Notes under the pieces: model-generated
What the model was told of the DNA's origin: nothing
The model's input: only the letters and a program-made list of their open reading frames with translations
The model's database searches: none
Made by a program: the position numbers and the translations under genes
In this document: piece by piece, positions 1 to 42,485 of the stretch
Layout: the number at the start of each line of letters is the position of its first letter
Position numbering within the stretch: position 1 is the stretch's first letter
NCBI GenBank assembly: GCA_949152475.1
Contig: OX424557.1
Span: 25,233,462 to 25,297,461, forward strand
Direction of reading: 5' to 3'
Length of the DNA stretch: 64,000 bases
Origin: Terebella lapidaria
Taxonomy: Eukaryota; Annelida; Polychaeta; Terebellida; Terebellidae

Positions 1-205
1 CAAAGAAGACAAAGGCAAAATAGGTATGTTGCATGTCGCAACCTCATGGACACATTTCATTGTAGGAAGCCATAGCATTTGATGGGCTAGCAGTCAACAT
101 CTACACACCACCCCAAGTCTACACCCTATGGCAGTATACGTGATACACAATGCCCTTTGATATTGAAAACACCATCACTTTCGCATTTGACATGAGTATG
201 GCATA
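1..205. repeat. Decayed fragment of repeat family A
   Basis: No gene is visible. Bases 60-200 resemble the segment at about 17,020-17,160 and its relatives at 26,600-26,720 and 28,290-28,400. They share the order of a cagt-caac block, a cacaccacc block, a ctaca block and an actttcgcattt block. Bases 20-60 resemble about 33,870-33,920. The copy is strongly diverged, so the assignment rests on the order of short matching blocks rather than long identity. It ends where the Penelope-like element's tail begins. Confidence 0.5.
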
Positions 206-549
206 GGTTTTAGACATATACACATATACACGTTCGAACACGTTGCACACCTGCTACTTGAACACCTCCAGATAGTTTATCGGTGTATTGCCATTCGTAT
301 CGTCTCAGCACCTTTATCTTCTTTTGGTTTCGATCATTCATTTTATCCATTAAAATAAACATGGCACCAATACTCAAGTACAAAGTATTCTGAGTGAACA
401 AAACCAAGTCCGTTATCCAATCTCAAAGTCCACTGTCAGGCGAAATCGATAAAATTGTGTGGAACTTCATTATATGGATATAATTAAGGAAGTGAAATCA
501 GGTGTTCCAGAAAGAGTGAGCATTCCCTGCCCCACATGTCCGAAATATT

Positions 550-1706
550 AACATGCAAAAAAGCTTTGCAGCATGTTGGTGACATATTTAGTGTACTTAT
601 CAACCAGATTGTGATGACGCCCATATAATTTCTTGAAAGCAGCTATCAGTCTCGGTAAAACATAGACTTGTCACAGCAGTTTGGAGACTAGCTGGGAACT
701 TCGGTGAACAAAGTTCTTATATCTGCAACTAGCTCTTGGATAACATATGAGTTGTGACACAAACACGCCATATGCTGGCGACATAGGAGTGTTGCTGCTT
801 AGAAAAGGAAAATTGACTATGGAAAAATTAAAATCATTACGCTTGTCATATAATCCAGTTGACAAGTTAGATTTTTCATTTTTTTTCAACCTCATATCTA
901 AATAGTGGGAAAAATTAGATGAGTTTGTAGTGTCTTTAATTTCAAATTCCTTAGGATATATGGCCTCCAAATAATCATCAAACTTGGGAAGTCGGGATTG
1001 TTCAGTAACAATACATCATCTATTTATCGGAAAGTGAAATTTAAGCTACTAGTTTGATTATTAAAAAAAAAGAACCATATTAACAACATCCGTTTCTGTA
1101 AGTTTACATGGAGCAGCTTAATCATCTTCACCAAAATAAGGTGTATTATATTTGACTACGATATACTGAAAACGACGTTGCCCATTTTTATGTGAAAAAG
1201 GAATTATGTATGAGTTTTTGGAGTTGAGAGTTCTGAATGAGATATTATGGTGTAGAGAATGGAAATATCGAATAATTTGATAGATGATGTGACTTCAGAT
1301 AGTGTGTGAGCATGTAGATATTTCAACAAAGGTTTGGAATTCTTCAATATCCACATTTGGTGTATGCCACTTCTAAAATAAATAGTTTCACAGTATTTTT
1401 TGGAGACCGTGTTTAATCTTGGACAAGATAATAGTTAATAGCTTAGAGAGAGCTTTGGTGGAACATGATGCCGAACCTAAAATATACCTTTGTTTGTATG
1501 GATTTTTGTGTAATTTTGGGATCCAGTATAAACTGGGTAGTTTAGAATCTTTACATGAAGTAATGATACCAAAAGAATGTAATACAGACAGGTGATTAGA
1601 TAGCATTTCGTTTTATGTTTAGTAATATCCTGGTATGTACTATTAGGATTGGTGTTGTTTGAAATATCCAGTTCATTAAATAGGCACTGGATATAGCATG
1701 TGTATG
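550..1706 (-). pseudogene. PLE reverse transcriptase, C-terminal half (decayed)
   Basis: Read on the minus strand, about 1606-1388 carries SLYWIPKLHKNPYKQR, the conserved fingers box, followed by LSKLL. About 1385-1080 continues with a KYCETIY-like stretch and an ETDVVNM box. At about 1022-1008 there is an IDDV catalytic aspartate pair. About 970-671 holds EIKDTT, a YLDMRL box and DFNFSIVNFPF, then the AYGVFVSQLI segment. About 660-560 ends with KLYGRHHNLV. Compared with the family layout, the piece of palm between ETDVVNM and the IDD box, which normally holds the GIPMG-type motif, is missing, apparently as an internal deletion. Stops and frame changes are scattered through it, so no active protein can be made. 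The family call rests on remembered motifs, not a search. Confidence 0.7.
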
Positions 1707-1807
1707 TGTGGCCTCGCTCCTACAAGCTTGGCTCGTGGGATCTGGCCCTTAGCGTCAGTTTCAAAACGCAGAGATTGTGGGTTCAAAACGAATTTTCGGT
1801 TGTCACA
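1707..1807 (+). repeat. 5' terminal direct repeat of the mini-LTR element
   Basis: This repeat of about 101 bp runs from TGTGGCC to TTGTCACA. It shares the blocks GCTCCTACAAGCTTGGCT, TCAAAACGCAGA and GTGGGTT with the copy at 1940-2065. It carries a box-B-like GGTTCAAA near 1780-1787. It is shorter than its partner. Confidence 0.65.
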
Positions 1808-1809
1808 TT

Positions 1810-1826
1810 TGGCGCTGCGAACAGGG
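1810..1826 (+). other. Primer-binding-site-like sequence of the mini-LTR element
   Basis: TGGCGCTGCGAACAGGG lies two bases after the CACA end of the first direct repeat, the usual place and form (TGGCGC...) of a tRNA primer-binding site in LTR elements. The primer tRNA is not identified. No clear polypurine tract was seen before 1940. Confidence 0.55.
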
Positions 1827-1939
1827 TAGGTAGGTAGGGTGCAGGACATGTCACGGTGTGGAATGGGTATATTCCAGGGGATTAACGGATAAGGACACCC
1901 CACACATCGAGGACGATGTGTCCCACCGCTGCCACCATA

Positions 1940-2065
1940 TGTGAACTGGCTCCTACAAGCTTGGCTAGTGGGATATCCCTTTAGCTCACTTGGTAGCGTC
2001 GGTCTCAAAACGCAGACATCGTGGGTTAAATCCTCGATCTGGCCAACGTATTTTCGGTCGTCACA
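1940..2065 (+). repeat. 3' terminal direct repeat of the mini-LTR element, fuller copy
   Basis: This 126-bp repeat runs from TGTGAACTGG to GTCGTCACA and is followed by the TATG target duplication. It contains the better-preserved tRNA-like segment. Confidence 0.65.
1975..2044 (+). promoter_or_regulatory. tRNA-like RNA polymerase III promoter inside the LTR
   Basis: The box-A-like TAGCTCACTTGG (1982-1993) and box-B-like GGTTAAATCC (2024-2033) are spaced as in a tRNA gene, with GTCGGTCTCAAAA where an anticodon arm would sit. The arrangement recalls an elongator tRNA-Met gene, but a clean cloverleaf cannot be drawn, so this is a tRNA relic or captured promoter rather than a working tRNA. Activity is inferred only. 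Confidence 0.55.
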
Positions 2066-2069
2066 TATG

Positions 2070-3289: not shown

Positions 3290-5348
3290 GTGATCATGAC
3301 TTCACAATCCTCCCTTGGTACCGGTGCCATGGACGAGCGTCCATGCCCGATGTGTCTGGTCAATACCCTCCGAGGAGGGGAGAAACACAGTTTGTGTTTC
3401 GACTGTTTGGACCATGGCCCGGTATCTATGGAGGATTTGAGGTGTGATCTGTGCCGTTTCTGGCGTCCCTCTTCCTTCGTGCAGGCGACTGCAAAGTATT
3501 CTGAAGCCTCGTTGGCTCGTCAGGATGCTTCGAGGCTTGCGGAAGCTTCGGCTCCGCAAGTCCGCCAGTCGCCCATGGAGGTGGACATGGTCAACGCGGC
3601 TGTGTAATCCTTTTTTGCACAGTCGCTGTCGTCCCTTCAGGGTCCCCTCCTGCCGGGTCTCTCTTCTCTGCTTGGACAGGGAGTCCCGGCCGGTTCTTCG
3701 GCTGCCCCTTCGTCGCAGGGAGAGCTTGCTCCCCCTGCTGGCAAGAAGTCGAAACCTTCTAAGAAGAAGGTTTCAGTTCTTGCCAAGACGAAAGCAGCCA
3801 AGGAACCGCACTCCACCTTCGTCGTCCCTCAGTCGGGGCCGATCGAGGTGGAGGGGTCCGTTGTCTCTTCCCCTGGGCCTGCCAAGAAGAGGAAGCGTGC
3901 TTCCTCTAAGCGCCGTGGTGCTGAGACCACATCGATTTTCGATGTGGCTCAGGCTTCGTCCGACCTCTCGGTGGGCGACGATCAGGCTTCGGGCTTCGAT
4001 TGGCGGAGCATCTTGGATGGCTCGTTCGGGTCCTCGGTCTCGAGGTTTGAGGGGGAAGAGTTCCCTTTGTTTGGGGGTGAGGCTCTCGATCGTTCGTGCG
4101 ATCGGGAGTCTTCACTTGGCGGTCGTGCTCCTGGTCCTCGATCATGGCACGATCGGGCGGGTGGTGCTGGGGTCATTCCTCAGGACCACTCAAGTCCTGT
4201 GTACACGGATGTAAGTCGCCGGACGGGCGCGATCGCTGAGCAGGCATTCCCAGCAGTAGCCACGCCCGTCCTTTGATGTACCCTTGGGGTCATCAAGGTC
4301 TTCGATCGGACCTGTGAGGTCCAACGATCGGGGGGGGGGGGGTCGAGTGGAAGCTGATCAGGAGTCGTCCTCCTCGGAGGATGAGACTTCCGATCAGGCC
4401 GGGGGTTCTAACTTCCGGTGGGCTTTGGAGTCAGTGGCAAGGCGTATGGACTTGCCGATCGATGCTCCAGGGCCCTCACGGGGAACCGGTAGGTTCGCGT
4501 TGGCGCCAGTTCGTCCGCCGATCCGGCTCCCTGTGGCTCCCGCGTTGGTCAAGTCCTTTGACAAGATCAACAAGGGAGTTATGGCTAAGAAGGATGTGGC
4601 TCGTGCGGAGTCGACATTCCCGACTAGCCGTGTTCGACCTGAGTCGATCGACACCTATCGGACTATAGAGTCCGAGGGTGGACATCAGACTTCCGTCCCG
4701 GTCGAAGACCCTAGCCTTCACCTGCTTTCCCGGAAGCAGGGTACGGTCTGGTCAGCTTATGTGAAAAAGGCTCGCCTTTCTCACTGGCAGACGCTGTCTC
4801 ATCAATTGATGGGGCAGCTCTCGTTGACAGATCACCTGACCACTTTGGTTCAGGTGTTTGTGGACGAGGCGGATCTGGAGGAGGGGAGTCGCGCCAACAT
4901 TCATGCAGCACTCGGCGTCTTGGCCGGAGTGGTGCATGCTGCTGAGCGTGACAGTGCGCACCTGGGCGCACAATTGGATCTCACCATGCGTGATGCCGAT
5001 CTCCGTCTGCTTGACGTGTCCGCTACGGACGTCGCTGAGCTACGTGGGAGGCCGCTTTTCTCGGGCTATACCTACGCCAAGCTCTCTCGATCGGATATTT
5101 CCGTCATGCGGGAACATCTCCGGGATGAGGCTATGGCCAAGGCTTTGCTTGGGAAGTCGGCGGGGTCTGGGACAGGCAAGAAGACCAAGGGTCAGAAGCC
5201 TGCCCAACCTCAGGCACCACATGCACCCGCTTCTGCGCAGCCGCCCTTTCGGGGGGCGCAGCCTCCCCCTCCTCAGGGGGATGGCAAGCGTGGAGGCAAA
5301 AGGGGTGGACGCTTCGAGGGCAAAGGGAAATCTTCTGCTAAGAAGTGA
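3290..5348 (+). pseudogene. DIRS gag-like part (fossil)
   Basis: The N-terminal part has a cysteine-rich cluster (CPMCL, CFDCL, CDLCRFW) typical of DIRS first proteins. It is followed by a Ser/Pro/Arg-rich stretch and a long acidic-to-basic region ending in a Gly/Lys-rich tail near 5270-5348. The gag-like product is thought to bind element RNA. The part is recognisable but not continuous. Confidence 0.65.
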
Positions 5349-5389
5349 CTCGTTGCGGGAAAGCGTAGGCTCTGTGGAAGGTTCAGTTC

Positions 5390-6871
5390 TGTCGGAATTC
5401 GAACTTCCACAACTTGGTACAGTCGGGGGGCGCCTGGCTCAGTTCGTCCAGAACTGGAGCGATCTGGCGTCGCCAGACAATTCAGTCGTGGCATGGGTGA
5501 AGTTCGGTCTCACCTTCAGATGGGAGGCTGGAAAACCACCGATCAGACCCAAAGCGTGGTTCTTCCCTGTGCCCGAGGATCGGGAAAAGTTTCAGCTTCT
5601 GCAGCACGAGGTGCAGCAGTTGCTAGAGAAACGTGCGATCGAGGTGGTCAAGGATGAGAGAGGATTCTATTCTCTCATCTTCCTAGTGCCGAAAAAGACA
5701 GGCGGGTGGCGTCCCGTTTTCGATCTGTCAAACCTCAACAAATTCCTGATCATACCCAGGTTCAAGATGGAGTCGACGCTTTCCGTTCAGAAAGCTCTGT
5801 CCAAGGGGAAGTGGGCAGTCAGTATCGACGTCAAGGACGCATACTCACATGTGCCCATATACCCAGCCGATCGGCGATACCTCAAGTTCGCTTTCGAGGG
5901 CTCGGTGTATCAGTTCAGGGTACTTCCTTTTGGAGTAGCCACCGCCCCTTACGTGTTCACCCGTATCGTAAGGGCGATGGCAGCCAGGTTTCGATCGGTT
6001 GGAATTCAATTCCACCATTGCATCGACGATTGGTTAATCATAGCCGACTCCCCGTCTCAGGCTATAGAGCAATCTGGGTTCGTCCTCAGGTTGGCGACCA
6101 GCCTTGGCTGGATCCCCAATTGGGCGAAGTCTCATCTGTCCCCGACGCAGAGATTCGAGTATGTCGGGGTAGATTACGATCTAGATCGAGGAGTAGCTCT
6201 TCCTCCGCGGAAGAGAGTTCTCAAGGCGATTGCGGCGATGGATGTCGATCACAGCTCGACAGTTTCTGTCCATCATCGGTCTGTTGGCGTCGATGGAGAA
6301 ACAGGTGCCGTTCGGCAGGTGCTTCCTCAGACCCATTCAATGGTGTCTAGCGTTGCAATGGCGGATCCTCACCGATCGACTAGACCAAGTCGTATCGGTG
6401 GACGATCGTGCTCGGGAAGCAATGCATTGGTGGCAGGACCATCGGAATCTTTTCCGAGGGATGCCACTGGCGGAGTATCTGCCCGATCGGACCTTCTTCA
6501 CCGATGCGTCAGAATTGGCTTGGGGAGCTCATATGGACGAGCACAAACTCTCTGCTGTGTGGAACACGAGCGAGAGGGCGTTGCACATCAATGTCCTAGA
6601 GCTGCGAGCAGTGAGACGTGCGTTCGAGATCTGGGGGCCTCAGAGTCCCCCAGGGACGAAATGGCTGGTCTTCACAGACAACAGCACAGTAGTGGCGCAC
6701 GTAAACAAACAAGGTGGAACTCGGTTGAGTCAGCTTTGTTTGGAGGCCGAGTGTCTGATCAGGTTTGCCTTCAAGTCCCGTCTGTTTATCAGGGCAAGGC
6801 ACCTACCGGGGCGCAGGAATGTCTTAGCGGACGCTCTGTCGAGACCGGACAAGATCATAGGCACGGAGTGA
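5390..6871 (+). pseudogene. DIRS reverse transcriptase and RNase H part (fossil)
   Basis: The reverse transcriptase domain lies at about 5600-6230: FLVPKKTGGWRPVFDLSNLN, then the SIDVKDAYSHVPI box, a LPFGVATAPYVFTR box and an aspartate-pair box (CIDDWLIIA). RNase H follows at about 6490-6850, with TFFTDASELAWGA, LELRAVRRA, FTDNSTVVAHVNKQGG and ARHLPGRRNVLADALSR. This arrangement and spelling are characteristic of DIRS-group elements, which make DNA from their RNA. The part is broken, with few breaks. Confidence 0.85.
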
Positions 6872-6879
6872 AGCTTACA

Positions 6880-7203
6880 TCCGGGGGTGTTTCGTCGCAT
6901 TTGTCAGGTGTTCGGGACACCGAACATACACCTGTTCGCAACCTCTCGGAATCACAAGCTCCCGGTCTACTTCTCACCTCTGCCAGAGAGCGAGGCACTG
7001 GCTGTGGACGCGATGTCTCAGTCCTGGGACGGGATGTTCGGGTATGCGTACCCGCCAACCCGGTTCCTAACGGAAGTGCTGCACAAAGTAGCCAGGTCTC
7101 AGTGGAAGATTCTGTTGGTGGCGCCATGCTGGCCGATGCAGGCGTGGTTCCCGCTGCTACTGTCCCTCCTGATCGATGTACCACGGGTTCTCCCGATCTA
7201 GGA
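6880..7203 (+). pseudogene. DIRS linker domain between RNase H and recombinase (fossil)
   Basis: It encodes VFGTPNIHLFATSRNHKLP, YFSPLPESEALAVDAMS and a tryptophan-rich APCWPMQAWFPLL stretch. This conserved segment regularly follows RNase H in DIRS-group elements. Its function is not established. Confidence 0.65.
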
Positions 7204-7204
7204 C

Positions 7205-8337
7205 AGGTTGCTGAAGCAACCGGGGCGGGATATATTTCACGATTCCGTCCACGTGCTCAAATTACGCGTGTGGAGGCTATCGAGCGATCCTTCCAGGAGG
7301 CAGGATTTTCTCAGCAGGTGTCCGTACATTTCGCGAGAAAGAATAGGAGATCCTCCTCTAAAACGTATGAGGCTAAATGGAGAGTATTCGTGCGTTGGTG
7401 TAACGGAAGGCGCATTGATCCGCTCTCTGCCCCTCTGAATGCAGTGCTAGACTTTCTCTGCTATCTCTTTGATAGGCTTAATTTGAAGCCTACTACGATC
7501 GAGGGATACAGGTCCATGCTGGGCCCTGTATTCCGTGCTAGGGGGATCGATTTAACTAATAATCGTATCCTTGCTGATCTGTTGGCGTCCTTTAGGACGC
7601 AAAGGCCACGGGGAGTTCCTACTCTACCGGATTGGGACATGGCTTTTGTGCTATATTGTCTTACTAAAGCAGCTTGGGAGCCTCTCAAGGAAGTTTCTTT
7701 GTAGAGTTTAACTCTTAAGACTTTCTTGTTAGTCATGCTAGCAAGTGGTCGAAGACGCTCAGATGTCGCGGCGATCGACGCATCGCGAGTGGCATTTGGC
7801 GCGGATGGGTCCGTTTCCTTATACCCAGTACGTGATTTTATGCCTAAGACACGTGCTGCGGTTGAGGGCGGGAAAGCGTTCTTCCCTATCGTAATTCCGT
7901 CACTGGGCGATTACGTAGGACGGAATGAGCCGGACGCTCTATTGTGCCCGGTATGAGCACTGAAAATCTACATCGATCATACCAGATCGATCAGGAAAGA
8001 TCGTAAGCGATTATTTATTTCCTATCAGCCTAATAGGGCTACGGATATCTCCACAGCTACACTATCCAGATGGGTGAAGGTTGTAGTGAGTACTGTCTAT
8101 GCGGAGTCAGGTGCTGACGATCGAGTCACTTACAAAATATCGTCCCACCAAATCCGACACATCTCGATGTCTTTGGCGGCCAGGTCGAATATTCCGTTGG
8201 AATATATCGTGAGGGCCGGAATGTGGACTAATTCTACGACATTCATCGGGTTCTATCTGTCCAATGCTGCCGAACTTCAGGACCAGTCGTCCAGATTTAG
8301 ACTGGGTCCGCTGGTCGTAGCACAGGCTATTGTTTGA
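7205..8337 (+). pseudogene. DIRS tyrosine recombinase part (fossil)
   Basis: It has an N-terminal SAM-like DNA-binding half (about 7250-7700, with KTYEAKWRVFVRWC and LDFLCYLFD). The catalytic half (about 7730-8337) carries an arginine box (SGRRRSDVAAID), an HQIRHISMSLA box and a C-terminal GMWTNSTTFIGFYL tyrosine box. In intact relatives this enzyme joins the circular DNA to the target without duplicating it. The part is recognisable throughout and is not continuous. Confidence 0.82.
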
Positions 8338-39062: not shown

Positions 39063-40695
39063 TACATGTGACCCAACGGGACATTCATCATTTCATCTTT
39101 CCAACTGACCCAGTGGGAACCTGACCCAGTCAGACATTCATCGCTTCATCATTTTACCTGACCCAGTGGGACACTCATCATTTCATCCTTTCAACTGCCC
39201 CAGTGGGAACCTCACCCAGTTAGACATTCATCGCTTCACCATTTTACCTGAATAAGTACGTGGGACACTCATTTCATCCTTTCAACTGACCCAGTGGGAA
39301 CCTGACCCAGTCAGACATTCATCGCTTCATCATTTAACATGACCCAGTGGGACACTCATCATTTCATCATTTCAACCGACCCAGTGGGAACCTGACCCAG
39401 TCAGACATTCATCATTTTACATGACCCAGATGGACACTCACCATTTCATCCTTTCAACTGACCCAGTGGGAACCTGACCCAGTCAGACATTCATCGCTTC
39501 ATCATTTAACATGACCCAGTGGGACACTCATCATTTCATCATTTCAACCGACCCAGTGGGAACCTGACCCAGTCAGACATTCATCATTTTACATGACCCA
39601 GTGGGACACTCATCATTTCATCATTTCAACTGACCCAGTGGGAACCTGATCCAGTCAGACATTCATCATTTCATCATTTTACATGACCCAGTGGGACATT
39701 CATCATTTCATCCTTTTAACTGACCCAGTGGGAACCTGACCCAGCCAGACATTCATCGCTTCATCATTTTACCTGACCCAGTGGGACACTCATCATTTCA
39801 TCATTTCAAATGACCCAGTGGGAACCTGATCCAGTCAGACATTCATCATTTCATCATTTTACATGACCCAGTCAGACATTCATCATTTTACATGACCCAG
39901 TGGGACACTCATCATTTCATCCTTTCAATTGACCCAGTGGGAACCTCATCATTTCATCATTCCAACTGACCCAGTGGGAACCTGACCCAGTCAGACATTC
40001 ATCGCTTCATCATTTTACATGACCCAGTGGGACATTCATCATTTCATCCTTTTAACTGACCCAGTGGGAACCTGACCCAGCCAGACATTCATCGCTTCAT
40101 CATTTTACCTGACCCAGTGGGACACTCATCATTTCATCATTTCAAATGACCCAGTGGGAACCTGATCCAGTCAAACATTCATCATTTCATCATTTTACAT
40201 GACCCAGTCAGACATTCATCATTTTACATGACCCAGTGGGACACTCATCATTTCATCCTTTCAATTGACCCAGTGGGAACCTCATCATTTCATCATTCCA
40301 ACTGACCCAGTTGGAACCTGACCCAGTCAGACATTCATCGCTTCATCATTTTACATGACCCAGTGGGACATTCATCATTTCATCCTTTTAACTGACCCAG
40401 TGGGAACCTGACCCAGCCAGAAATTCATCGCTTCATCATTTTACCTGACCCAGTGGGACACTCATCATTTCAACTGACCCAGTGGGAACCTGACCCAGTG
40501 AAACATTCATCATTTCAAATGGCCCACTGGGACATTCATCATTTTATCCTTTCAAATGACCCAGTTGGAACCTGAACCAGTCAGATATTCATCGCTTCAT
40601 CATTTCCCTTGACCTAGTGGGACACTGATCATTTCATCCTTCCATCTGACCCAGTGGGAACCTCAGCCAGTCAGACATTGATTGCTTCATCATTA
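39063..40695 (+). repeat. Minisatellite array, forward
   Basis: Composite of subunits of about 30-37 bp, each starting TGACCCAG and continuing as GTGGGACACTCATC, GTGGGAACC or TCAGACATTCATC. They alternate to form higher-order units of about 90-100 bp. It is the inverted counterpart of 41,300-42,485. Confidence 0.85.
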
Positions 40696-40704
40696 AGGTA
40701 TTTC

Positions 40705-41299
40705 AGCAGATATGCCTTGATGGTTTTGTCAAAAAAAAAAATTTTTTCGTTTTTTCTTCTTTCACAGCATTTTTCGTGAAAAATGCCGACACAGCATTTT
40801 TCCGACTGGACAAAAAAAATTCAGGTCAAGGTCAAAGTTCATCCCCAGTACCCCTTTAAATATGTTTCACTCCGCCACAAGTCCGAAAATAACGTCTGTT
40901 TCGCTCCACGACGCACCGCTTCCGAGATTTGCATGAGAGCCACAAGGATGACTCAGCTAAAATTAATTCAAGCCCTAGGTCAACCGTCATTCGACAGATC
41001 ACCCTCAAAATTAACAGTCTTCTTCCCTGGTGATATATGGATCTCCATGCAAAGTCCCACAGTCATTGCCATAATATTTTTTTAGTTATCATGTGGAACC
41101 AGAAATATTGATTTCATCCTCACGGACCTTACGGACCCCGAAGCCAGCTCAAAAACAATAAGCTTTTTCTACACCTCATTTCTGACCAGCTGTGGAAATT
41201 TGGCAGATATCAGGGCAAACTGAAATTATCGTGCGGAAACCAGAAAATGAAAGAAAAAAAGATTTTTTTTTTGACAAAAGCATAAAGGCATTACTGGTG
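40705..41299. mobile_element. Central spacer, itself an inverted-repeat element
   Basis: Its ends share ATGCCTT(T/G)ATG(C/G)TTTTGTC in inverted orientation, followed by A/T runs. The body (gtttcgctccacgacgcacc, tttcatcctcacggacct, cggaccccg) is homologous to 52,870-53,310. Weak open frame at 40783-41085 only. Confidence 0.6.
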
Positions 41300-42485
41300 T
41301 CTGCCTTGAAAATGAAGCGATGAATGTCTGACTCTGTCAGGTTCCCACTGGGTCAGTTGAAATGATGAAATGATGAGTGTCCTACTAGGTCAAGTGAAAT
41401 GATGAAGCAATGAACGTCTGGCTGGGTCAGTTGGAATGATGAAATGATGAGGTTTCCACTGGGTCAGTTGAAAGGATGAAAAGATGAATGTCCCACTGGG
41501 TCATGTAAAATGATGACATGATAAAGGCCTCATTGGGTCAGGTTCCCACTGGGTCAGTTGAAAGGATGAAATGATGAGTGCCCCACTGGGTCATGTAAAA
41601 TGATGAAGCGATGAATGTCTGGTTGGGTCAGGTTCCCACTGGGTCAGTTGGAAGAATGAAATGATGAGTGTCCCACTGGGTCAGGTAAAATGACGGAGCA
41701 ATGAATGTCTGATTGGCTGAGGTTCCCACTGGGTCAGTTGAAAGGATGAAATGATGAATGTCCCACTGGGTCATGTAAAATGATGAAATGATGAAGGCCT
41801 CATTGGGTCAGGTTCCCACTGGGTCAGTTGAAAGGATGAAATGATGAGTGTCCCACTGGGTCAGGTAAAATGATGAAGCGATGAATGTCTGGCTGGGTCA
41901 GGTTCCCACTGGGTCAGTTAAAAGGATGAAATGATGAATGTCCCACTGGGTCATGTAAAATGATGAAGCGATGAATGTCTGACTGGGTCAGGTTCTCACT
42001 GGGTCAGTTGGAATGATGAAATGATGAGGTTCCCACTGGGTCAGTTGAAATGATGAAATGATGAGTGTCCCACTGGGTCATGGTAAATGATGAAGTGATG
42101 AATGTCTGGCTGGGTCAGGTTCCCACTGGGTCAGTTGAAAGGATGAAATGATGAGTGTCCCACTGGGTCAGGTAAAATGATGAAGCGATGAATGTCTGGC
42201 TGGGTCAGGTTCCCACTGGGTCAGTTAAAAGGATGAAATGATGAATGTCCCACTGGGTCATGTAAAATGATGAAATGATGAGTGTCCCACTGGGTCATGT
42301 TAAATGATGAAGCGATGAATGTCTGGCTGGGTCAGGTTCCCACTGGGTCAGTTGAAAGGATGAAATGATGAGTGTCCCACTGGGTCAGGTAAAATGATGA
42401 AGCGATGAATGTCTGACTGGGTCAGATTCCCACTGGGTCAGTTGAAAGGATGAAATGATGAGTGTCCCACTGGGTCAGATTCTCA
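41300..42485 (-). repeat. Minisatellite array, inverted
   Basis: Same units as 39,063-40,695 on the opposite strand (CTGGGTCA, GATGAATGTC, GATGAAATGATGAGTG). The two arrays could fold on each other over more than 1 kb. Confidence 0.85.

What the first reader, a model, noticed from the sequence alone, without database searches (positions are those of the whole stretch)
1707..2065. Mini-LTR element whose terminal repeats carry a tRNA-like Pol III promoter
Seen: 101- and 126-bp direct repeats (TG...CA), a TGGCGC primer-site-like sequence directly after the first, a TATG target duplication, and spaced box-A/box-B-like motifs inside the repeats. Known: plant Cassandra TRIMs carry 5S rRNA promoters in their LTRs. 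Inference: this is an animal counterpart using a tRNA, possibly tRNA-Met, so transcription could start inside the LTR by RNA polymerase III. I am not aware of a named animal family like this.
Basis: partly seen in the sequence, partly recalled or inferred. Interest (0 to 1): 0.82.

Follow-up and report, generated by a model that had tools for sequence, protein, structure and literature searches.

The report
tRNA-promoter mini-retrotransposon with two tRNA sites
A tiny, gene-less jumping element in what looks like an annelid worm genome carries a tRNA-like promoter in its end repeats, which is a kind described in 2024, but where such elements normally keep a purine-rich primer it carries a copy of the end of a second host tRNA, hinting at an unusual way of starting its second DNA strand.

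Summary
The window copy is a damaged member of a family with about 54 internal regions in a 761.6-Mb genome, an annelid by its mitochondrial gene order. Intact copies are about 393 bp with 128-bp LTRs holding box A, box B and TTTT, and 4-bp target duplications. It is not a tandem SINE but the kind named Helenus (TRIMp3; Kojima 2024, PMC10886601), whose listed animal phyla do not include annelids.

The new point: the family has no polypurine tract. Two bases inside the 3' LTR lies TCCCACCGCTGCCACCA, a 17-base copy of a host tRNA 3' end plus CCA (recalled as tRNA-Leu), mirroring the 18-base tRNA-Ser site two bases inside the 5' LTR. It is the least-substituted 17-base window of the internal region, while a second TRIM family in the same genome keeps a purine-rich tract. 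I infer, without biochemical proof, that tRNA-Leu primes the plus strand.

The parts
1703..1706 (.). left target site duplication TATG
   Evidence: 4-bp TSDs in other copies
1707..1807 (+). 5' LTR, 101 bp; relative to 128-bp LTRs of other copies it has lost the box A stretch and a second stretch after box B
1780..1790 (+). box B of the 5' LTR (one mismatch to GGTTCRANNCC)
1793..1796 (+). TTTT, Pol III terminator-like, near the LTR end
   Evidence: family columns
1810..1827 (+). primer binding site for host tRNA-Ser(CGA) 3' end, two bases inside the 5' LTR; the commonest form in the family matches 18 of 18, the window copy differs at one position
1902..1921 (+). hairpin (8-bp arms, AGGA loop) upstream of the 3' site; similarly placed hairpins precede the purine-rich tracts of two other TRIM-like elements (L070, L097); read by eye
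1921..1937 (+). TCCCACCGCTGCCACCA: sense copy of a host tRNA 3' end with CCA (recalled as tRNA-Leu AAG/TAG), in the place of the polypurine tract, two bases before the 3' LTR
1940..2065 (+). 3' LTR, 126 bp
1982..1993 (+). box A (one mismatch to TRGCNNARYNGG)
2024..2034 (+). box B of the 3' LTR (two mismatches to GGTTCRANNCC)
2051..2054 (+). TTTT, Pol III terminator-like
2066..2069 (.). right target site duplication TATG

Best explanation
The window holds a decayed copy of a non-autonomous LTR retrotransposon (TRIM) of the Helenus/TRIMp3 type. RNA polymerase III is recruited by box A and box B in the 5' LTR and reads through the first TTTT to the TTTT of the 3' LTR (inferred). A Gypsy-type reverse transcriptase supplied in trans starts the minus strand from tRNA-Ser(CGA) at the 18-base site two bases inside the 5' LTR (site shown, use inferred). 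The plus strand is not started from a polypurine tract, since there is none; instead the minus-strand cDNA carries a perfect site for a second tRNA (tRNA-Leu) two bases from the 3' LTR, and that tRNA primes it (site shown, use inferred). Both ends then carry two extra bases that the integrase trims, giving TG...CA and a 4-bp duplication. Separate weights: TRIM 0.97; Helenus-like Pol III LTR 0.8; Gypsy helper 0.7; tRNA-primed plus strand 0.5.
For: Family: 40 scored of 519 candidate matches; 54 internal regions within 2 mismatches, reversed-pattern control 0. LTR-type copying: each copy's two LTRs are more alike than random pairings (0 of 2000 permutations as low, 36 copies); 4-bp TSDs. Promoter. 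PBS: 54 places carry the tRNA-Ser 3' end within one mismatch of my pattern, control 0, and ARAGORN calls the six loci fetched tRNA-Ser(CGA) with the end that is the 18-base complement. Helper: 11 of 17 further PBS loci fetched belong to two long LTR families. One shares 29 identical bases with the TRIM across LTR end and PBS and has one LTR pair 6.4 kb apart. The other shares the PBS, has LTR pairs 5.1 to 11 kb apart, three of them about 7.4 kb, and encodes an RT-associated RNase H (PF17919, E 7.8e-33), Gypsy-type by my reading. Second tRNA site: 17 bases with CCA; 235 places carry that tRNA 3' end within one mismatch, control 0. In 34 copies it has no variant shared by three or more copies in 17 columns and the lowest substitution rate of all 17-base windows tested (0 of 81 others as low). 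The longest purine run in the 22 bases before the 3' LTR is 1 in 32 of 34 copies and 2 in two, whereas family B in L070 has GAGGGAGGGGGG... there, and a candidate helper has TTTGGGGAG near its 3' LTR (read by eye).
Against: No transcript, cDNA or biochemical data. TTTT in the 5' LTR should stop much Pol III transcription early. The tRNA-like part scores poorly as a tRNA. The 3' tract could be conserved for another reason, or because the family is young: two of the 81 other windows also lack shared variants, and against the 79 middle columns the lack of shared variants gives p = 0.03 only when it is pooled with the PBS. The same 22-base signature occurs at 137 places within one mismatch; of the 97 exact ones only 27 lie in the 40 TRIM copies. 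The rest may be ordinary Leu-primed elements on the other strand, so the tract may be a captured relic. No copy of this LTR end followed by the Leu site in PBS position was found (0 within three mismatches). The long family with the best-shared junction is not the one in which RNase H was seen; in it only a protease-like piece below the Pfam cut-off, with stops around it, was seen.
Confidence: 0.55

Rival explanations
1. Ordinary Helenus: the 17-base tRNA match before the 3' LTR is a captured or recombined relic of a Leu-primed element, and the plus strand is started by some non-purine RNA fragment at that place.
For: Many other places carry the same signature (137 within one mismatch), possibly primer sites of Leu-primed LTR elements read on the other strand. 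The LTR starts TGTGAC and ends GTCACA, so template switching at this short homology could join an inverted primer site.
Against: Position, 2-base spacing and CCA end mirror a true PBS; lowest substitution rate of the internal region; no purine run to serve instead; a hairpin upstream is kept while the stretch after it differs from L070 and L097.
Confidence: 0.33
2. The 3' tract works in RNA: it imitates the tRNA-Leu 3' end and anneals to the primer site of Leu-primed helper RNAs, so the element is packaged with them.
For: The tract is sense-identical to the tRNA and so complementary to such primer sites; one search is compatible with such elements being present.
Against: Candidate helpers found by shared PBS use tRNA-Ser; does not explain the exact 2-base spacing or the lack of a PPT.
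Confidence: 0.1
3. The tRNA-like part is decoration; the element is transcribed by RNA polymerase II like other TRIMs.
For: Weak tRNA score; terminator-like TTTT inside the 5' LTR.
Against: Box A and box B kept at tRNA spacing in 57 of 68 LTRs, one strand only; the same promoter module recurs at 459 places and in more than one LTR family.
Confidence: 0.2
4. Two tRNA-derived SINEs in tandem.
For: Both repeats carry tRNA-like boxes.
Against: Constant internal region, PBS, 4-bp TSDs, LTR pairs copied together.
Confidence: 0.01

Closest known systems
Helenus (Kojima 2024, PMC10886601), group TRIMp3
   Same: TRIM under 1000 bp, tRNA-like sequence with box A and B inside the LTRs, PBS for a host tRNA, 4-bp TSD as in animal Helenus, Gypsy-like candidate helpers, several families per genome, tandem arrays
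   Different: annelid host (not among the six animal phyla listed); no polypurine tract, a tRNA 3'-end copy in its place
Cassandra (plant TRIM with 5S rRNA promoter; as described in PMC10886601)
   Same: Pol III promoter and terminator-like sequence within the LTR
   Different: tRNA-like not 5S promoter; animal; no PPT
biv-TRIM of bivalves (PMC6934838, parts 1-2 of 5 read)
   Same: animal TRIM, tandem arrays
   Different: 202-218 bp repeats, PPT GGGGAGA in most copies, no tRNA promoter mentioned in the parts read
Family B TRIM, L070 about 150-720 minus strand, same genome
   Same: box A and B and TTTTT in the LTR, hairpin before the 3' end
   Different: 168-bp LTR, period 245, PBS TGGCGCCCAATG (tRNA-Lys type, recalled), long G-rich PPT; one copy seen

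Membership tests
TRIM | direct LTRs TG...CA, total under 1000 bp, no coding | tested here: met
   393 bp, LTR 128, internal 137
TRIM | target site duplication | tested here: met
   24 of 36 copies, at least 4 bp exact
Helenus | designation rule of PMC10886601: TRIM with tRNA-derived sequence in its LTRs (TRGCY, YGG, GGTTC) | tested here: met
   boxes in 57 of 68 LTRs; whole-tRNA model weak, 13.6 bits, below cut-off
Helenus | animal members make 4-bp TSDs | tested here: met
Helenus | PBS to a host tRNA after the 5' LTR | tested here: met
   18-base tRNA-Ser(CGA) complement
Helenus | polypurine tract before the 3' LTR (listed in the abstract of PMC10886601, not in its designation rule) | tested here: not met
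   longest purine run 1 or 2 in the last 22 bases in 34 of 34 copies
Helenus | functional Pol III transcription | not testable with these tools
   no RNA data; stated as unvalidated for published Helenus too
Gypsy helper | one autonomous family with the same LTR end and PBS that encodes Gypsy pol | tested here: inconclusive
   one long family shares LTR end and PBS but only a sub-threshold protease piece was seen; the other shares the PBS and encodes RNase H
tRNA-derived SINE | single tRNA head, no LTR pair or PBS | tested here: not met

The most novel reading that the evidence does not exclude
An LTR retroelement that has given up the polypurine tract and starts both DNA strands from host tRNAs, tRNA-Ser for minus and tRNA-Leu for plus, with mirror-image primer sites two bases inside each LTR.
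Probability: 0.45. Interest if true: 0.82.

Novelty: new variant of a known kind. Interest (0 to 1): 0.6.

Why it matters
It adds an annelid to the listed hosts of Pol III-promoted mini-LTR elements and finds candidate Gypsy helpers in the same genome by shared LTR end and primer site. More important, as far as I recall LTR retroelements start their second strand from a polypurine tract; an amplified family without one, with a perfect second tRNA site exactly where the primer must end, makes tRNA-primed plus-strand synthesis directly testable and would show that the PPT is replaceable.

Tried and rejected
Tandem SINEs: rejected. A functional tRNA gene: ARAGORN found none in the window and Rfam tRNA is below its cut-off. 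tRNA-Met origin: not supported; the source tRNA remains unknown because few kinds of nuclear host tRNA were held. A sister TRIM with the same LTR end and a Leu PBS: none within three mismatches, though one place (C14:8352136) has the tRNA-like module 95 bases before a Leu site in PBS orientation (from capped lists; its letters were not seen). Viral contigs hold no exact match to the LTR-PBS junction. Literature on tRNA-primed plus strands or missing PPTs: searches (11 papers; 15 of 21 listed; 1; 2; 10; 10 of 17 listed): I saw titles and abstract starts only and noticed no such case. Helenus after 2024: one search listed 14 papers, of which, by their titles, only Kojima's and one meeting report (passages) concern the element. 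Annelid TRIMs: one search listed 8 of 2,233, titles and abstract starts only, so it says little. Subscription papers and the supplements of PMC10886601 were not available.

Full report
What was checked. Against the window alone the repeats align at 68% identity, E 3e-12. The box motifs are real in the 3' LTR; in the 5' LTR box A has been lost.

Genome and host. The window lies on contig C3 of a 761.6-Mb assembly of 438 contigs. A 15,973-base contig (C438) is a mitochondrion: twelve protein genes recognised by eye, all on one strand, in the order nad4L nad4 [rRNA space] nad1 nad3 nad2 cox1 cox2 cox3 nad6 cob atp6 [repeats] nad5. This fits the common annelid order, with all genes on one strand (passages of PMC8924214, and PMC4505326; gene names and the match are mine, in part from memory). 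I therefore take the host as an annelid; the species is unknown. A second contig, C417, also carries cox1-like matches and was not studied.

The family. A search of the genome scored 40 matches of 519 candidates. Full copies are about 393 bp: LTR 128, internal 137. A 28-base internal piece occurs at 54 places within two mismatches, reversed-pattern control 0. I aligned 43 copies (the 40, thus those most like the window, plus L094, L096, L098; the array in L095 was left out). Four share flanks with another copy and were set aside as duplicates. Of 39 left, three had no usable flanks; 24 of the remaining 36 have exact direct repeats of at least 4 bp (22 of 4, one of 5, one of 7), against 18 of 1482 mismatched flank pairs. 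The two LTRs of one copy are closer to each other than random pairings (mean 0.063 against 0.083; 0 of 2000 permutations as low), though the own partner is nearest, ties allowed, in only 16 of 36, the two badly bounded copies L072 and L074 included. These are marks of LTR retrotransposition and exclude tandem SINEs.

Promoter. In the LTR, TAGCTCACTTGG (box A, one mismatch), GGTTCRATCCC (box B, exact) and TTTT follow one another. 57 of 68 LTRs from 34 copies (four duplicates and five badly bounded copies dropped) hold the pair on the sense strand, none on the other; 20 of 20,000 shuffles do. The 30-base module occurs at 459 places within two mismatches. Neighbouring modules are mostly spaced 265 bases (this family), with 229-231 and 246 as further classes (from the 100 listed of 459), so more than one family seems to share it; family B in L070 is a read example. 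The tRNA covariance model sees both LTRs of L017 at 13.6 bits, E 7, below its gathering score of 29, and nothing at E up to 1 in L002 or in the family B stretch. The module is thus a promoter remnant rather than a tRNA; its source tRNA is undetermined.

Minus-strand primer site. The 18 bases TGGCGCTGCGAGCAGGGT, the commonest form in the family, are the complement of the 3' end plus CCA of host tRNA-Ser(CGA) (54 places within one mismatch of the pattern, control 0; six loci called by ARAGORN). The window copy differs at one position. The LTR-PBS pattern TTTGGCGCTGCGARCAGG is found at 48 places, control 0, of which 30 lie in or at the edge of the 40 copies. The other 18 places were fetched as 17 loci: four are further copies of this family (L094, L095 with two sites, L096, L098), nine belong to one long LTR family (L083-L085, L087-L092; L091 differs upstream), two to a second (L086, L099), L097 is another TRIM-like element and L093 is unassigned.

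Candidate helpers. The second long family shares 29 consecutive bases with this TRIM across LTR end and PBS and has one LTR pair 6.4 kb apart (C5). A small piece shows a protease-like stretch, below the Pfam cut-off (16.1 against 24.3 bits), with stops elsewhere, and by eye TTTGGGGAG before its 3' LTR (the LTR start there was not checked against the 5' LTR). The first family has LTR pairs about 7.4 kb apart at three places, and 5.1, 8.2 and 11 kb at one each, and encodes an RT-associated RNase H (PF17919), Gypsy-type by my reading. Mobilisation in trans is inferred, and no single family was shown to have both the shared LTR end and an intact pol; I lowered the weight of the Gypsy helper to 0.7 for this.

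The unusual 3' site. Immediately before the 3' LTR, where a polypurine tract belongs, stands TCCCACCGCTGCCACCA + 2 bases + TGTGAC. In all 34 copies the longest purine run in the last 22 bases is one or two. I recall this end as that of animal tRNA-Leu (AAG/TAG); I could not fold the host genes. A chance 17-base match to one of about 50 tRNA ends at this spot is of the order of 1e-8 (my estimate). The tract has no variant shared by three or more copies in 17 columns and is the least-substituted 17-base window of the internal region (0 of 81 others as low; two of the 81 also lack shared variants). Pooled with the PBS, 0 of 35 columns against 10 of 79 middle columns carry shared variants, Fisher p 0.03. 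In comparison, family B (L070) and the element in L097 have, by eye, a similarly placed hairpin followed by purine-rich GAGGGAGGGGGG... or GGGAAAGA. The two sites are mirror images: CA-TT-TGGCGC... at one end...CCACCA-TA-TG at the other.

How it probably works. Pol III RNA from the 5' LTR box A/B, reading through the weak TTTT (inferred); tRNA-Ser starts the minus strand; the minus strand then shows a perfect tRNA-Leu site whose 3' OH would lie two bases from the LTR, exactly where plus-strand synthesis must start to give the observed ends; integrase trims two bases at each end and makes a 4-bp duplication. The sites are shown; their use is inferred. The main doubt is whether the tract is a captured relic: the 22-base signature occurs at 137 places within one mismatch, and of 97 exact ones 27 are in the copies and one more in L098. 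The remainder, perhaps Leu-primed elements read on the other strand, could not be read.

What is known. Kojima 2024 (PMC10886601; [quoted passage not shown] This family meets the designation rule but not the PPT statement, so I file it as a Helenus-like variant. The one copy of family B looks like a standard Helenus. My searches (listings, apart from the papers named) showed no report of tRNA-primed plus strands or of Helenus in annelids. The library lacks most subscription papers, and the listings were capped.

Verdict. Real, correctly located, largely correctly interpreted, of a kind already named, in a phylum not on its published list, with one structural departure that deserves an experiment.

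Noticed in passing
L070:150-720 (minus strand): A second Helenus-like family lies close to a family A copy: 168-bp LTR, period 245, PBS of tRNA-Lys type (recalled), hairpin and a very long G-rich PPT.
   Followed up: partly
L097:140-420: Same Ser PBS and part of the tRNA-like module in a diverged 3' LTR, PPT-like GGGAAAGA: a possible third TRIM family.
   Followed up: partly
L095 (C9:8818500-8819200): Tandem array LTR-internal-LTR-internal-LTR of the window's family.
   Followed up: no
C14:8352136-8352252: tRNA-like module followed 95 bases on by the Leu site in PBS orientation; may be a sister family primed by tRNA-Leu; letters not seen.
   Followed up: no
C3:19464716-19465311, C14:2695623-2695939, C2:7941349-7941655: The Leu signature recurs at 285-295-base spacing, like tandem arrays of another element.
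   Followed up: no
C5:24323895-24356184 and C8:39013444-39129968: Dense tRNA gene arrays: scores of tRNA-Leu-like ends about 230-330 bases apart in many places, and tRNA-Ser(CGA) ends about every 2.7 kb.
   Followed up: no
window 4260-7704: Reverse transcriptase frame (PF00078, E 1.6e-20; 954-aa open frame at 4840-7704), DIRS-like by eye.
   Followed up: partly
window 39069-42477: Large tandem arrays of 37/90-base units in both orientations.
   Followed up: no
contig C417 (61,412 bp): A second mitochondrial-like contig with cox1 and tRNA matches, perhaps from another eukaryote in the sample.
   Followed up: no
L004/L010, L011/L012, L016/L023/L024: Copies with identical or near-identical immediate flanks: probably segmental duplications carrying the element.
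   Followed up: no
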